Source: [Lactobacillus] rogosae (GTDB taxonomy: Bacteria > Bacillota > Clostridia > Lachnospirales > Lachnospiraceae). From it: a DNA stretch of 64,000 bases. The stretch lies in contig FONU01000017.1 of the NCBI GenBank assembly GCA_900112995.1, forward strand, positions 1-64,000. Reading direction: 5' to 3'. The position numbers and the translations under genes were made by a program. Of this stretch, positions 31,301 to 36,667 are shown in pieces. The notes under the pieces are model-generated. The model saw nothing but the letters and a program-made list of their open reading frames with translations, did no database searches and was not told the DNA's origin. Numbering within the stretch: position 1 is the stretch's first letter; each line of letters starts with the position of its first letter.

Positions 31301-32734
31301 TTACTTTTTTAACTGGAACTTCATCTTGTCTTCTAGCATAACAAGCCCTACAGCATCGTCCATATTCCACAGGTACTCATCATCTACAATAAGGTCGTGT
31401 CCATATTCTGTTCTTATAACGTAACTGTAATGGTCACCCTTATAGATAAGGTTGATAATATGTCCAGATACAAGACCTTCCTCCACATTATCACTCATTC
31501 TTATATCATATGGCTGGATTGAAACCATAACCTTTAACTTAGCCGTATCAATAGCCTCATTATTCTCATCAACTAAAACATTGTTCTTCATACTTGATTT
31601 AGGAATAACTTTTGTTAAATCGCAATTAATAACCTTGCCATTAAAATCAAGTGTATAATCACTATTAATATTAGTAACAAAGCTTGTTGTATGGTCCTCA
31701 GCAAGCATAATATGAATTCCGTCCGGCTCAAGCTTCATACCAATTCTTTCACCGACAGAATAACATTTGGTCGTTCTTATAACCATTTCGTACTTGCCCG
31801 ATTCAACAGTAACCTCATAGTGCATACCTTTGAATATAACCGACACAACTTCGCCCTCAATAATTCCGTCCTCTGGCTTAGTTATAATTACATCTTCCGG
31901 TCTTACAACAACATCGACAAGTGTACCCTCTGGAACATCGTCCATTCCTATGAATTCACCACCGCAAAATCTTACTTTCATATGTCCTGTCATAATACCT
32001 TTGAAAATGTTACTTTCACCGATAAAGTCAGCTACAAATGCATTCTGCGGCTCATTATATATATCCTCAGGCGTACCAATCTGCTGTATCCTGCCTTCTG
32101 AAAGAACAACAATCTTATCAGACATTGTAAGTGCTTCTTCCTGATCGTGTGTTACATATATAAATGTAATTCCAAGTTCATCGTGCATATGCTTCAATTC
32201 AATCTGCATTTCCTGACGCATTTTCAAATCGAGTGCACCTAACGGCTCATCAAGCATAAGAATTTCCGGCTCATTAACCAAGGCTCTTGCAATTGCAATT
32301 CTTTGCTGCTGTCCACCTGATAAGGTAGATATCTTTCTATTCTCAAACCCCTCAAGGTCAACTATATCAAGAACTCTCTTTACTTTCTTTCTAATCTCCT
32401 CTTTTGGCAGCTTTTTAAGTTTAAGTCCAAATGCTATATTGTCATATATATTCATATGTGGAAATAAAGCATATCGCTGGAATACTGTATTAATAGGCCT
32501 TTTGTTTGCTGGAAGCTGTGATATATCTTCTCCATTAAGAAGTATTTCTCCACTTGTTGGCATCTCAAATCCTGCTATCATTCTTAATGTAGTAGTCTTA
32601 CCACATCCGGATGGTCCAAGAAAAGTGACGAACTCTCCTCTTTTTACTTCAAGATTAAAATCGTCTACAGCCTTAAATCCATTATCACTATATACTTTAC
32701 TAATATGTCTTAATTCTATTATATTATCTGCCAT
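31301..32734 (-). CDS. potA: polyamine ABC transporter ATPase with duplicated C-terminal domain
   Basis: This ATPase energises polyamine uptake. Walker A is GPSGCGKTT (about 38-46), the signature is LSGGQQQR and Walker B is ILMLDEPLGALD, followed by the switch histidine in THDQEEA. After about residue 235 a TOBE-type regulatory domain occurs. The protein continues to 477 residues instead of about 350-370. The extra part includes VMVSIQPYDIRMSDN and GHIINLIYKGDHYSYVI, which resembles a second TOBE repeat. This suggests extra substrate or protein regulation. It is the first gene of the operon. Confidence 0.92.
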   Translation of the reverse strand: MADNIIELRHISKVYSDNGFKAVDDFNLEVKRGEFVTFLGPSGCGKTTTLRMIAGFEMPTSGEILLNGEDISQLPANKRPINTVFQRYALFPHMNIYDNIAFGLKLKKLPKEEIRKKVKRVLDIVDLEGFENRKISTLSGGQQQRIAIARALVNEPEILMLDEPLGALDLKMRQEMQIELKHMHDELGITFIYVTHDQEEALTMSDKIVVLSEGRIQQIGTPEDIYNEPQNAFVADFIGESNIFKGIMTGHMKVRFCGGEFIGMDDVPEGTLVDVVVRPEDVIITKPEDGIIEGEVVSVIFKGMHYEVTVESGKYEMVIRTTKCYSVGERIGMKLEPDGIHIMLAEDHTTSFVTNINSDYTLDFNGKVINCDLTKVIPKSSMKNNVLVDENNEAIDTAKLKVMVSIQPYDIRMSDNVEEGLVSGHIINLIYKGDHYSYVIRTEYGHDLIVDDEYLWNMDDAVGLVMLEDKMKFQLKK

Positions 32735-32891
32735 CGTTCTCCTTTTGCACCTCGTGGTTAATTTATTAATTCAGCATATATGCCTTATTACTTCTATCTG
32801 TTATTTTAATAATTATACATAGATTTATCAATAATAATCTTCAATATCTCATTATATTGTTACTTTATTGCCTTATTATTCTATTACTTTA

Positions 32892-33308
32892 TTATTTAGT
32901 CTGCCTGTCAGGTACGTTGACTATACTATCTATCTTCTGCTTTAATATTGACAGGCTTCCCATTCTCTTTAATGCCATATCAGACTGCTCCTCCATCTGC
33001 TTTAGCTTCTGCGTATTTCCCATTGTCTTATATACATTTTTATAAAATTCCGCATTATAATACTCTGCAACCGCTATGCTTTCATCCAGTTCATTGTCCT
33101 GAATATTATCTATCACAATCTTATCCCTGCTGGCATAATCTACTGCCCTGCCATATTCATCATTCTTATACAGGTTCATAAACCAGCGTGTATTATATGT
33201 CCTGTTCTCATCATTATAATTCTCTGCTACCGCTATTATCATCGCAGCATTAAGAACAACAAGAATTACAATAATTATATCCATAATAATTAATCTGCTT
33301 TTCTTCAT
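32892..33308 (-). CDS. small membrane protein, gene IV of the zinc-ribbon operon
   Basis: I start at MKKSRLIIMDIIIVILVVLN (33306-33308), preceded by GAGGATTATT; the longer frame would translate the leader repeat. One membrane helix (about 6-28) is followed by a 105-residue polar helical domain. It contains LYKNDEYGRAVDYASRD, which parallels YLDSSSYKELSDYSDEI and YWENEDYYDFFNYSDSI in the two upstream paralogues. Function unknown. It is separated from gene III by about 95 bp carrying leader repeat copy B, so it may have extra control. Confidence 0.72.
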   Translation of the reverse strand: MKKSRLIIMDIIIVILVVLNAAMIIAVAENYNDENRTYNTRWFMNLYKNDEYGRAVDYASRDKIVIDNIQDNELDESIAVAEYYNAEFYKNVYKTMGNTQKLKQMEEQSDMALKRMGSLSILKQKIDSIVNVPDRQTK

Positions 33309-33410
33309 AATAATCCTCATTCCTGCGCACATTTTGCGCATATCGGCTTTGTGTCAAATGTATACAAACATAAATCCTGCGTATAAAAAATCCATTTTCA
33401 CATCTATCCT
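33309..33410 (-). repeat. structured leader repeat, copy B
   Basis: The minus strand carries GTGAAAATGGATTTTTTATAC and GCAGGATTTATG, then GTATACATTTGACACAAAGC, GATATG, hairpin TGCGCA-AAATG-TGCGCA and GGAATGAGGATTATT before the ATG. Both modules match copies A and C. It spans the end of gene III and the whole gap to gene IV. Confidence 0.7.
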
Positions 33411-34072
33411 CTTTGTATAAGGCACTGCTCAATTCGTGCGCTTGAAAATGTATCAATAGCCTCTAAATCCTCATCTGTAATGTGATAATATTTCTTAAGC
33501 AGTACTCCCATATCTTCCCGCATTTTGTTAAGATACTTTTCATTGTCTGATGTCATAGTTACTTCTTTATCTTTATATGCCGATAACTGTGTATAGTAGT
33601 AAAACTGCGAAAGATAATATGCCAGATTAGACACATCTGACTGTGTAAGATTATAATTATCACTATCGTTAGTATTCATAAATCCCACTGACCACACATA
33701 ATATCTTACACCCATAAGAACCGAATATTCTTTATCAAATGCTTTATTATCAAGAGCATCTATCTCATCACTATAATCCGATAATTCCTTATAACTACTG
33801 CTATCAAGATATGAATATATTTTATTACTTATTTCTGTATAATTATTCGTTATTGCTGATTTCTTTACAGCCTTTTTTACAGAGCCAGTTAATGCAATAC
33901 CAATAAATGCTATAAGAAGCAGTGCAATAACAACTGCGGGTATTGCAAATGCGTAAGCTTTCTTTGAATTACTGTCCGCCTTATTATGTACATTCTTTTC
34001 TGTATTATTGAAATCTTTATCATACCTGTCTATGGCTTTTTTATGACTTTCTGTATAATACTTATCTTCCAT
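33404..34072 (-). CDS. membrane-anchored protein, gene III of the zinc-ribbon operon
   Basis: The 222-residue protein has a charged cytoplasmic head, a membrane helix at about 43-66 and a 150-residue external helical domain. The C-terminus (LLKKYYHITDEDLEAIDTFS) aligns with gene I (ILKTYFYVSDEQVQAIRTAD), and the YxxxxxYxxLxDYSDEI motif is shared with genes I and IV. It lacks the zinc ribbon that precedes the helix in gene I. Its start overlaps the end of gene II by 11 bp. No function is recognised. Confidence 0.75.
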   Translation of the reverse strand: MEDKYYTESHKKAIDRYDKDFNNTEKNVHNKADSNSKKAYAFAIPAVVIALLLIAFIGIALTGSVKKAVKKSAITNNYTEISNKIYSYLDSSSYKELSDYSDEIDALDNKAFDKEYSVLMGVRYYVWSVGFMNTNDSDNYNLTQSDVSNLAYYLSQFYYYTQLSAYKDKEVTMTSDNEKYLNKMREDMGVLLKKYYHITDEDLEAIDTFSSARIEQCLIQRG

Positions 34073-34388
34073 CTATTATCTCTTTTCTTATATTATTAAC
34101 GGCAATGCTTTCGTTGTGTCTGTCAATTGCTTTTACAGAAAATATAGCTGCCACCAGTATGATTACAACCGCCAGTACAAGGACAAGCACTTTTACAGCC
34201 TCTTCTACAATTATTTTTTTATTAATATCAGCAAGTTCTGCCAGCCTTTGCCTAAGTCCTGCCAGTCCTTTCATATATGATTTTTCCTGTCCATAATAAT
34301 TGGAATTGCCACAATATGGACACTGGCTGAGATTTTTATTAAATTCTGCGCCACACGAAGGACATATCACATTCATTTTATTATTCAT
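34062..34388 (-). CDS. zinc-ribbon membrane protein, gene II
   Basis: A 108-residue protein: zinc ribbon CPSCGAEFNKNLSQCPYCG (residues 10-28, two CxxC pairs), a linker, and a membrane helix at about 70-92, ending in a short tail. It resembles the first half of gene I without the external domain. It overlaps gene I by 8 bp and gene III by 11 bp, so the three are translationally coupled. Confidence 0.78.
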   Translation of the reverse strand: MNNKMNVICPSCGAEFNKNLSQCPYCGNSNYYGQEKSYMKGLAGLRQRLAELADINKKIIVEEAVKVLVLVLAVVIILVAAIFSVKAIDRHNESIAVNNIRKEIIDGR

Positions 34389-35124
34389 ACTTATTTTTCA
34401 CACTTTCTTCTATAATAAGTTGGATTTGCGTACTATCCGCCGTCCTTATAGCCTGCACCTGTTCATCACTCACATAAAAATATGTCTTTAATATTGCATC
34501 CATATTCTTATAAATCTGTTCTACCTTCTCATCAGACGTATCTCCAACCGCAAGCTTTCCATATATATAATGAAGGTTATCCAAATCATAAAATTCATCC
34601 AGCAGACCACAAATATCCGTCAGTGCCTTATTCTTATCAAATATATTATCCGTGGCAAGATATTCACTTATATAATTATTCACAAATATGTATATCTGTG
34701 CAGCCTCTATCTGTGGGTGATAATCAAGATACGGACCATCTGACCAGCCTGATATATTAATGCTGTCACTATAATTAAAGAAATCATAGTAATCTTCATT
34801 CTCCCAATATCTGTCTAACGTGGCTGTCACCGTATCATATTCACTAACAGCATTTTTCTGCTTAATAAAATACCAGTCGTGTGTAAGCATATACACCACC
34901 AGACCAATAAACATTGCAAGAAGCACCGCTATAGCCACTCCACGCACAAGCACTTTTACTGTATACAGCTGCTGTGCGCTTATTGATTTTTCCGCCGTAT
35001 TAACTTTTGACTGATATTTGTCATAATCTTTTTTATAGGCTTCCCCTGCCCTATTCTTCCTGCCACAATGCGGACACACCTCATCGGTCAGATTAAGCAC
35101 TGCCCCACAATACTGACATTTCAT
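34381..35124 (-). CDS. zinc-ribbon membrane protein with external helical domain, gene I
   Basis: With the ATG at 35122-35124 the protein starts MKCQYCGAVLNLTDEVCPHC, a double-CxxC zinc ribbon. A GTG start 17 codons upstream (35175) is also possible since neither has an ideal ribosome site. A lysine-rich linker leads to a membrane helix (about 60-82), then a 165-residue outside domain rich in aromatic and acidic residues. The domain is shared with genes III and IV. This is the first gene of the operon. Zinc ribbons at the N-terminus of single-pass proteins are often membrane-proximal scaffolds, but no function is known here. Confidence 0.75.
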   Translation of the reverse strand: MKCQYCGAVLNLTDEVCPHCGRKNRAGEAYKKDYDKYQSKVNTAEKSISAQQLYTVKVLVRGVAIAVLLAMFIGLVVYMLTHDWYFIKQKNAVSEYDTVTATLDRYWENEDYYDFFNYSDSINISGWSDGPYLDYHPQIEAAQIYIFVNNYISEYLATDNIFDKNKALTDICGLLDEFYDLDNLHYIYGKLAVGDTSDEKVEQIYKNMDAILKTYFYVSDEQVQAIRTADSTQIQLIIEESVKNKYE

Positions 35125-35338
35125 ATTAAATGTACTGCCTTTATAAATATTCTCCCTTTCCACGCTTTCCCTCACTTTTTCTCTCTTTTATGCTATTTAT
35201 AGATAATTATTTATTGTATATACGAATAAAATGTATTATTTTATACTATACTTTAATATAATATATATTTTTCATATTAACTAAGCGTAATATGCTAAAA
35301 TCTTCTTTGATGAAATATTCTTTAATGAAACATACGTT

Positions 35339-35430
35339 ATTATAATATATAATCAGTCTTATTGCATTAGTTTATATTTTGTTTTTATAATTCACATTTT
35401 ACTCACATCTTTTACATATCACGTTCACAT
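35339..35430 (-). promoter_or_regulatory. four phased operator repeats and putative promoter of the zinc-ribbon operon
   Basis: On the plus strand TCACAT begins at 35392, 35403 and 35425, and a variant ACATAT at 35414, giving four units with exact 11-bp period. Downstream on the minus strand a TATAAT (35339-35344) lacks a good -35. Phased direct repeats before a weak promoter suggest activation by an OmpR-type regulator. The leader would be about 200 nt. A hairpin with ATAACTAC and GTAGTTAT arms lies at about 35501-35530. Confidence 0.5.
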
Positions 35431-35540
35431 TTTCCCTCTAATATAATCATTGTTGAAAGACATATGACATTGCTTTCAATAAACTTTTTCATAAACAGAT
35501 AACTACCTACTCCCTTAAATTTGTAGTTATCACTCTCCCA

Positions 35541-35604
35541 AAAAGAACCTGAATGATAATCATATCAATTGCCACTTGATATCATTATCATTCAGGTTCT
35601 TTTA
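35541..35604 (-). terminator. terminator after tcdA
   Basis: AAGAACCTGAATGATAAT pairs with ATTATCATTCAGGTTCTT, with an inner ATCA/TGAT pair. On the minus strand it is followed by T residues, ending the tcdA transcript. Confidence 0.85.
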
Positions 35605-35676
35605 GTTTATTTATTAAATATTGTAATCACTTTAATTACTTTGCTGTTTCTATCAAAATATTTTATCCTATAAGTC

Positions 35677-36441
35677 CTACTTTGCATTAACCCCTGCGAT
35701 ATCCTTAATCACCTCTCCAGCAATTATAAGCCCTACAACAGATGGCACAAATGCCACGCTTCCCGGAATATCACGTCTTTCTGTACATTTGTGTTCTGCT
35801 CCTGGTGGGCATATGCAGTTAGTACGACAGCTTATCGACATATCCTCGATTGGCCTTGTTGGCTGTTCTTCTGAATATACAACCTTAAGCTTCTTAACGC
35901 CACGTTTCTTAAGTTCACGGCGCATAACCTTTGCAAGAGGACACACCCTTGTCTTATATATATCTGCAACCCTGAATGCTGTCGGGTCCAGCTTATTACC
36001 AGCTCCCATACTGCTTATAACAGGAATTCCAAGTTCATTTGCTTTCATAATAATTGAAATCTTAGCTGTAACAGTATCTACCGCATCAATTATATAGTCA
36101 TATTCATCAAATGGAAATTCATCAGCATTTTCTGGAAGAAAGAAACAATTATGAATTCTTACATCAACATTTGGATTAATCTCCAACATTCTCTCTTTCA
36201 TAACCTCTGTCTTATACTTTCCAACAGTTTTTCTTGTTGCTATAATCTGTCTGTTAAGATTGGTAAGACATACTTTATCATCATCTATAAGGTCAAATGC
36301 GCCTATGCCGCTTCTTACAAGTGCTTCACAGGCATATCCGCCTACTCCGCCTATTCCAAATACAGCAACTCTCTTATTAGCTAGTTCCTGCATTGCACTT
36401 TCACCTAGCAATAATTGTGTTCTTGAAAACTGATTTAACAT
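35677..36441 (-). CDS. tcdA: tRNA threonylcarbamoyladenosine dehydratase
   Basis: This E1-like ATP-dependent enzyme cyclises t6A to ct6A at position 37 of ANN-decoding tRNAs. It starts MLNQFSRTQLLLGESAM and has the nucleotide-binding glycine motif GIGGVGGYACEALVRSG, the adenylation Arg in NLNRQI, and Asp in DAVDTVTAK. CPLAKVMRRELKKRG and CICPPG segments are typical of TcdA. I start at 36441 because GGAG lies six bases upstream, within the four codons of the longer frame. Length 254 is normal. It stands alone. Confidence 0.9.
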   Translation of the reverse strand: MLNQFSRTQLLLGESAMQELANKRVAVFGIGGVGGYACEALVRSGIGAFDLIDDDKVCLTNLNRQIIATRKTVGKYKTEVMKERMLEINPNVDVRIHNCFFLPENADEFPFDEYDYIIDAVDTVTAKISIIMKANELGIPVISSMGAGNKLDPTAFRVADIYKTRVCPLAKVMRRELKKRGVKKLKVVYSEEQPTRPIEDMSISCRTNCICPPGAEHKCTERRDIPGSVAFVPSVVGLIIAGEVIKDIAGVNAK

Positions 36442-36667
36442 CTTTATCTCCATTCCGAATTATTAATTACTAAACCTACCATTATGGTAGTATTTCAATA
36501 AGAGATTATATTATAATCAGAAGTTTCTGTCAAAGCAATACTTTTATTACTCTTCCATACATTTTCTTCTATATATTTATACCTATATATTTTCTTCTAT
36601 AGTATATTCATGTCTATATATTTTTATTTATATATTCGTATTTTTATATTTACATCAATACATTTAT

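What the first reader, a model, noticed from the sequence alone, without database searches (positions are those of the whole stretch)
32892..35124. Four-gene operon of zinc-ribbon and single-pass membrane proteins with a shared external domain
Genes I and II begin with double-CxxC ribbons and have one membrane helix. Genes I, III and IV share an external helical domain with a common YxxxxxYxxxxxYS-type motif, and I and III have similar C-termini. Parts appear to be distributed among proteins: II is I without the domain, and III is I without the ribbon. Genes I to III overlap by 8-11 bp. I know no described system of this form; it may be an envelope complex.
Basis: partly seen in the sequence, partly recalled or inferred. 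Interest (0 to 1): 0.8.

Follow-up and report, generated by a model that had tools for sequence, protein, structure and literature searches.

The report
Modular three-part membrane complex in Clostridia
The four small genes look like a re-cut version of a three-protein membrane set found in a number of gut and rumen Clostridia, in which a metal-binding piece inside the cell and a helical piece outside it are dealt out differently among the proteins; its job is unknown.

Summary
The four genes are real. The order A-B-C was read in 41 distinct loci, one of them a second copy in the window's own genome; the three types are separable by sequence (117 of 117). By profile gene I is a B, II an A without its outer domain, III a B without its ribbon, and IV a C. 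The outer domains of A and B are clearly homologous; the link of C to them is weak. The window genes fall outside that clade, though not by a firm margin. Best explanation: one heteromeric envelope complex, ribbons inside, helical domains outside, TcaA-like in layout. Physical complex and function are inferred. None of the family libraries, PDB searches or paper searches made here describes it.

The parts
34381..35124 (-). Gene I, B-type protein: ribbon + one membrane helix + outer helical domain (247 aa)
   Evidence: B profile 144.5 bits vs A 73.1; AlphaFold2 mean pLDDT 90.7
35053..35124 (-). Zinc ribbon of gene I (residues 1-24)
   Evidence: C3, C6, C17, C20 nearly invariant in the B alignments
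34885..34941 (-). Predicted membrane helix of gene I (residues 62-80)
   Evidence: hydropathy; more K/R before than after the helix in 76 of 98 B relatives, fewer in 9; gene I itself has 2 and 2
34384..34839 (-). Outer helical domain of gene I (residues 96-247)
   Evidence: AF2 helices 96-108, 112-121, 133-157, 161-189, 197-216, 220-226, 231-246
34062..34388 (-). Gene II, A-type protein reduced to ribbon + membrane helix (108 aa)
   Evidence: A profile 92.4 bits vs B 39.9; C9, C12, C23, C26 invariant in the A alignment
33404..34072 (-). Gene III, B-type protein without ribbon: membrane helix + outer domain (222 aa)
   Evidence: B profile 84.3 bits vs A 46.8; ribbonless relative in the same genus, 29% identical
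32892..33308 (-). Gene IV, C-type protein: membrane helix + outer helical domain (138 aa)
   Evidence: C profile 72.5 bits vs B 13.1; AlphaFold2 mean pLDDT 88.8, helices 2-31, 40-48, 52-61, 72-96, 99-115, 117-130
34381..34388 (-). 8 bp overlap of genes I and II
   Evidence: ORF coordinates
34062..34072 (-). 11 bp overlap of genes II and III
   Evidence: ORF coordinates
33304..33419 (-). Dispersed repeat / leader element between III and IV; its 3' part (33306-33341) carries a short hairpin and the ribosome-binding box of gene IV and stands before other genes of the genome

Best explanation
The operon encodes a heteromeric single-pass membrane complex. It is a re-cut version of a conserved three-gene module (A, B, C) of some Lachnospiraceae and related Clostridia families. 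Zinc ribbons of A- and B-type subunits sit in the cytoplasm, one helix per subunit crosses the membrane, and helical domains of A, B and C types sit outside. In the window the usual parts list (two ribbons, two A/B-type outer domains, one C-type outer domain) is spread over four chains instead of three: I keeps ribbon and outer domain, II keeps only a ribbon, III only an outer domain, and IV is the C subunit. Shown: the module, its gene order, the domain content, the homology of A and B outer domains, and the fusion. Inferred: N-terminus inside, physical complex, and a role as an envelope scaffold or sensor that couples the outer domains to something the ribbons bind in the cytoplasm, comparable in layout to TcaA.
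For: Order A-B-C in 41 distinct loci: 22, L056 and L070, 15, L137 and L138. They include the own genome and four other families (codes f24, f8, f2 of the order; f31 of the class). The types were first named by position and layout; five-fold cross-validation on 39 of the 41 then assigned 117 of 117 proteins to the right type by sequence. I saw no neighbour gene that recurs across most loci (by eye). Tight overlaps in the five-gene form: B1/C1 -8 bp in 28 of 32, B2/C2 -4, -8 or -11 bp in 32 of 32, A'/B2 -4 or -11 bp in 24 of 32. B1 and B2, and likewise C1 and C2, are sister groups, so the B-C pair was duplicated as a unit. In L108, L111 and L119 the A' ribbon is fused to a B2 without its own ribbon, natural evidence that A and B work together and that ribbons are exchangeable. 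Outer domains of A and B: hhalign 98.3%, score 83.7 vs 14.0 as the best of 60 shuffles. Positive-inside bias in B, 76 of 98. A-type proteins are bimodal in length, 36 of 86-132 aa and 23 of 224-285 aa of 59, window and repeat genomes included, i.e. with or without the whole outer domain.
Against: No interaction was tested and no multimer was predicted. The positive-inside bias is weak in A (31 vs 21 of 59) and C (43 vs 27 of 99), and the window's own I (2 vs 2) and III (3 vs 4) do not show it. The C link to A/B outer domains is weak. L075 has an A without outer domain but only one B, so loss of the A domain does not require a second B. L104 lacks A'. The second ribbonless locus (L167) has a frameshifted ribbon ORF and an in-frame stop in C, so it may be decaying or misassembled. 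Nothing seen in the neighbourhoods indicates a function.
Confidence: 0.6

Rival explanations
1. The proteins are independent TcaA/YvbJ-like envelope proteins that happen to be co-transcribed; each works alone and the domain losses are neutral decay.
For: 27 of 39 B rows hit the NCBIfam TcaA model at E<=0.05, best E 1.4e-7; II matches its positions 4-71 at 19.3 bits against a cut-off of 550. TcaA is described with an intracellular zinc finger, one membrane span and an outer bulk (PMC10328498, passages).
Against: Fixed order in 41 loci, conserved overlaps, duplication of B with C, and the A'-B2 fusion.
Confidence: 0.2
2. A transmembrane regulator: the outer domains sense an envelope signal and the ribbons act on transcription or RNA in the cytoplasm.
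For: Ribbons are common nucleic-acid binders (established knowledge); the layout connects outside to inside; the ribbon spacing is strictly conserved (156 of 157).
Against: No sigma factor, kinase or regulator recurs beside the module in the flanks read (by eye). The ribbon can be dropped from one chain, which only says that not every copy is needed.
Confidence: 0.25
3. An anti-phage or immunity module.
For: Patchy presence: 32 of 250 family genomes by my hand count at E<=1e-12 (own genome and a split one, G137, included); 11 of 22 genomes of the genus at E<=1e-6, of which 9 have a long match.
Against: PADLOC: best E 0.002, to a restriction enzyme over the ribbon, in 8 proteins; no defence neighbourhood seen; no match in 72,556 plasmid or 50,697 phage records with one B protein.
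Confidence: 0.08
4. The window operon is a degraded five-gene operon (B1-C1-A'-B2-C2) that lost C1, not an independent arrangement.
For: Same left-to-right plan of B, short A, B, C. The AU test does not reject I with B1 (p 0.076) and only just rejects III with B2 (p 0.047). With III left out, I falls at the base of a group with L060, L057 and the B1+B2 clade (82/78).
Against: I and III fall outside the B1+B2 clade in each tree made (100/96; 99/95; 98/95, 98/95 and 99/95) and IV outside the C1+C2 clade (98/90). With I left out, III and its same-genus relative join canonical B proteins of the genus, but only at 74/84.
Confidence: 0.2

Closest known systems
TcaA (NCBIfam NF053815; Staphylococcus aureus)
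   Same: Short N-terminal zinc ribbon, one membrane helix, bulk outside; weak sequence match in 27 of 39 B rows, for gene II over ribbon to membrane helix. Layout per AlphaFold in PMC10328498 (passages).
   Different: One protein of 454 residues in tcaRAB with a MarR regulator and an MFS transporter (PMC10611510, passages); window proteins far below the 550-bit cut-off; here the outer domain is a short all-helical one, spread over several proteins.
YvbJ
   Same: Described as an uncharacterised membrane protein of Gram-positive bacteria with an N-terminal Zn ribbon (PMC13377840, passages).
   Different: One protein; no sequence comparison was made here.
Helical domain of GH84 O-GlcNAcases
   Same: C: Foldseek best hit, prob 0.95 but E 0.14, VIA Z 5.3-6.4 over the GH84 rows. 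B: VIA Z 7.3 and 7.0 to residues about 410-581 of 5fl0 and 2j47, ranks 4 and 6 (5fl0 taken as the same enzyme from the matching range).
   Different: Z below the level the tool warns about for helical bundles, and other unrelated helical chains rank as high; no catalytic domain here. Only a hint that B and C share a fold.

Membership tests
TcaA family (NF053815) | Whole-protein score above the curated cut-off of 550 bits | tested here: not met
   II 19.3 bits; I, III and IV not listed for this model; best of 39 B rows E 1.4e-7
TcaA family (NF053815) | Cytoplasmic ribbon, single membrane helix, outer bulk | tested here: inconclusive
   Layout present in I; orientation predicted only
TcaA family (NF053815) | Effect on teichoic acid retention and peptidoglycan cross-linking | not testable with these tools
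   Needs cells; phenotype as described in PMC10328498 (passages)
Canonical A-B-C module (defined here) | A, B and C profiles each matched by adjacent genes in the order A, B, C | tested here: met
   II, III, IV best match A, B, C in that order; I is an extra B upstream
Canonical A-B-C module (defined here) | A and B each carry ribbon and outer domain | tested here: not met
   II lacks the outer domain and III lacks the ribbon
Five-gene form B1-C1-A'-B2-C2 | Members fall inside the B1+B2 and C1+C2 clades | tested here: inconclusive
   Outside in the trees; but long branches and borderline AU tests
Known anti-phage systems (PADLOC) | Convincing match to a PADLOC model | tested here: not met
   8 proteins, best E 0.002 to a restriction enzyme over the ribbon
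GH84 helical-domain fold | Confident structural match | tested here: inconclusive

The most novel reading that the evidence does not exclude
A-B-C is an undescribed transmembrane machine with a fixed parts list (cytoplasmic ribbons, single membrane helices, two related kinds of helical outer domain). Evolution has repeatedly re-cut it: outer domain lost from A in two or three settings (five-gene clade, L075, and the window if independent), ribbon lost from B, ribbon of A fused onto B, B-C pair doubled. This would mean that the ribbons act as one shared cytoplasmic cluster rather than as parts of particular chains.
Probability: 0.4. Interest if true: 0.75.

Novelty: new variant of a known kind. 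Interest (0 to 1): 0.55.

Why it matters
If the complex is real, it adds a conserved, unnamed envelope system to gut and rumen Clostridia. Natural split, duplicated and fused versions give ready-made tests of which parts must touch. It would also give context to TcaA- and YvbJ-like ribbon proteins, whose cytoplasmic ribbon has no assigned partner in the passages I read.

Tried and rejected
Family libraries gave only weak matches for the window proteins, mostly to ribbons; PADLOC nothing of weight. PDB by sequence: no hit at E<=1 for gene I; weak hits for the B profile (best 0.022, ribosomal L32 over the ribbon) and the C profile (best 0.022, a bacterial kinesin-light-chain-like protein, 30 positions). 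No known fold stood out: no Foldseek match at E<=0.001 for either model, and VIA Z values (best 8.4 and 6.9) were below the helical-bundle warning level. Such absences do not show that the fold is new. I considered an origin of the window operon from the five-gene form and hold it less likely (rival 4). I considered that I and III are sister genes (96/84 and 98/80), but the join did not survive leaving one out, so I do not claim it. Conserved genomic context was looked for by eye, from the first 40-45 residues of up to two genes on each side, and not found; a few pairs of loci share neighbours (for example L112/L117, L097/L131, L111/L125, L102/L121) (the script stopped on an error and was completed). 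Rfam gave nothing above a gathering score in 31500-36500. Promoter-like sites were 23 against 18.6 expected, so no operon promoter is claimed.

Rows dropped: one search left out L096, L098, L104, L113 and L132 and used a subset of the five-gene rows; searches used chosen subsets; one search left out L096, L104, L113, L132 and L136 as repeats; searches kept repeats, and one search excluded window rows; one search used 39 of the 41 canonical loci (L056 and L070 were not in that file). Of the 40 loci fetched held full A-B-C, 4 the doubled form, 1 (L075) a short A, 3 (L074, L076, L087) were partial in my script and 8 (L085, L086, L090-L095) held no module. Of 19, 15 held A-B-C, L167 the ribbonless form, L181 was incomplete in my script, and L169 and L170 held fragments or unrelated ribbon proteins. 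Of 43 loci parsed, 32 had five genes, 3 the fusion, L104 four, L098, L130 and L135 were cut, L114 showed B1-C1 only, and L136-L138 were canonical (L136 repeats L057). L139-L144 were not parsed.

Full report
What is there. On the minus strand at 32892-35124 lie four genes. I (34381-35124, 247 aa) has a C-x2-C-x10-C-x2-C ribbon, a membrane helix at residues 62-80 and an outer domain. II (34062-34388, 108 aa) has a ribbon and a membrane helix. III (33404-34072, 222 aa) has a membrane helix and outer domain without ribbon. IV (32892-33308, 138 aa) has a membrane helix and a shorter outer domain. I/II overlap by 8 bp, II/III by 11 bp, and III and IV are 95 bp apart. The window lies in a 2.8 Mb genome of 49 contigs. 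Downstream on the same strand is a PotA-like ATPase gene at 31301-32734 and upstream a ThiF/TcdA-like gene at 35677-36453 (names recalled from the sequences).

The wider picture. Searching 250 genomes of the family with gene I found 39 with a match at E<=0.001, and a profile of 28 B proteins found 147. Many of the latter are short, ribbon-only matches; counting by hand the listed matches at E<=1e-12 gives 32 of 250 genomes, the own genome and G137 (split over two frames) included. Reading the loci revealed a constant three-gene order: A (ribbon, membrane helix, outer domain, often with AExEYMxxL after the ribbon), B (ribbon, membrane helix, outer domain, often with KHxxDMxxYxxEF) and C (membrane helix and outer domain). 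Full A-B-C was read in 41 distinct loci: 22, two, 15 and two. The types were named at first by position and layout. Five-fold cross-validated profiles on 39 of these loci then put 117 of 117 proteins in the right type, so A, B and C are separable by sequence. At E<=1e-12 the B profile hit 12 of 295 order genomes, 5 of 291 class genomes and 1 of 299 phylum genomes, the own genome each time included. In the genus it hit 11 of 22 at E<=1e-6, nine of them with a long match. The own genome has a second, canonical copy on another contig (L056).

A doubled form. A scan of named genome contigs with four B1 proteins returned 49 loci. Of the 43 that I parsed (L096-L138), 32 carry B1-C1-A'-B2-C2, where A' is about 117 aa and lacks the outer domain. 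L104 has B1-C1-B2-C2. L108, L111 and L119 have B1-C1-(A' ribbon fused to B2 without ribbon)-C2. L098, L130 and L135 are cut, L114 shows only B1-C1 in my parse, and L136-L138 are canonical. L096, L104, L113, L132 and L136 repeat genomes already seen under G handles. Overlaps are nearly constant. B1 and B2 form one clade (100/96), and C1 and C2 do too (98/90), so the B-C pair doubled as a unit.

Where the window fits. With profiles built without window rows, II is an A (92.4 bits, B 39.9), I a B (144.5, A 73.1), III a B (84.3, A 46.8) and IV a C (72.5, B 13.1). I and III stay outside the B1+B2 clade in the trees made, and IV outside C1+C2. AU tests of I with B1 (p 0.076) and III with B2 (p 0.047) are borderline. 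The sister placement of I and III (96/84, 98/80) joins long branches and does not survive leaving one out: III with its ribbonless relative then joins canonical B proteins of the genus at 74/84, and I falls at the base of L060, L057 and the B1+B2 clade at 82/78. So an independent origin of the window operon is favoured, not settled. A relative of III without ribbon exists in the same genus (L167, 29% identity, E 2e-24 in a one-sequence comparison). There the ribbon ORF upstream is frameshifted before its membrane helix, the C gene has an in-frame stop and no gene I was seen, so that locus is decaying or poorly assembled. The net parts of the window operon (two ribbons, two A/B-type outer domains, one C-type) equal those of a canonical A-B-C.

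Do the outer domains belong together? A against B: hhalign probability 98.3%, score 83.7, best of 60 shuffles 14.0. B against C: 29.7%, 23.5 against 15.2. A against C: 6.0%, 18.5 against 12.9. The C alignments fall in the same helix pair. A smaller run with reversed controls agreed for A-B and B-C. AlphaFold2 models of I (pLDDT 90.7) and IV (88.8) both show two short helices after the membrane, followed by longer ones. The region reads like a TPR-type helix pair to me (recalled). The C profile touches a bacterial kinesin-light-chain-like PDB entry at E 0.022, over another part of the domain, but no TPR family was among the 12 Pfam families listed for 37 C rows or the 25 of 44 shown for 39 B rows, so this is a resemblance only.

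What it may do. B proteins have more positive charge before the membrane helix than after in 76 of 98 and less in 9, so the ribbon is probably inside and the helical domain outside; A, C and the window's own I and III show this weakly or not at all. The B proteins match the TcaA model below its cut-off (27 of 39 rows). TcaA is reported with an intracellular zinc finger, one membrane span and an outer bulk, and affects wall teichoic acid and peptidoglycan cross-linking (PMC10328498, passages). I therefore propose an envelope complex with TcaA-like layout in which the ribbons form a joint cytoplasmic face. The complex is supported by order, overlaps, pairwise duplication and fusion. The envelope role is analogy. 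By eye, no neighbouring gene recurs across most loci, though a few pairs of loci share neighbours. Defence, plasmid and phage links were not found.

Not in print as far as searched: four term combinations returned 0 papers in the open-access library. One search found three papers with TcaA and zinc ribbon, one search found 76 with TcaA and teichoic acid (8 listed), and one with YvbJ. Of these I saw passages of PMC10611510, PMC10328498 and PMC13377840, and of the others the listing only.

Noticed in passing
window 33304-33419, minus strand: A dispersed element lies between III and IV. Its 3' part, a short hairpin (TGCGC...GCGCA) and GAGGATTATTATG, abuts the start of IV and occurs 4 times in the genome, this copy included, with up to 3 mismatches (reversed-pattern control 0). 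Other copies stand before genes that read like MTA/SAH nucleosidase, adenosine deaminase and HisC (names recalled). It may be a shared leader or a mobile repeat that gave gene IV its own ribosome-binding site.
   Followed up: partly
L108 5669-6544, L111 5670-6545, L119 5664-6542: Natural fusion of the A' ribbon segment to a B2 that lacks its own ribbon.
   Followed up: yes
L056 2282-6670: The canonical copy in the own genome lies between a 409-aa protein and a galE-like epimerase gene; L061 has a nucleotidyltransferase-like gene overlapping A (names recalled). A possible link to sugar-nucleotide metabolism.
   Followed up: no
window 35538-35614: A long inverted repeat between the operon and the upstream gene, possibly a terminator (my terminator scan did not list it); weak Rfam hits there are below gathering scores.
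   Followed up: no
L169 2518-3200: In a same-genus genome an A-type ORF ends soon after its membrane helix and a second, overlapping ORF may hold the rest of the outer domain; apparently a broken gene.
   Followed up: no
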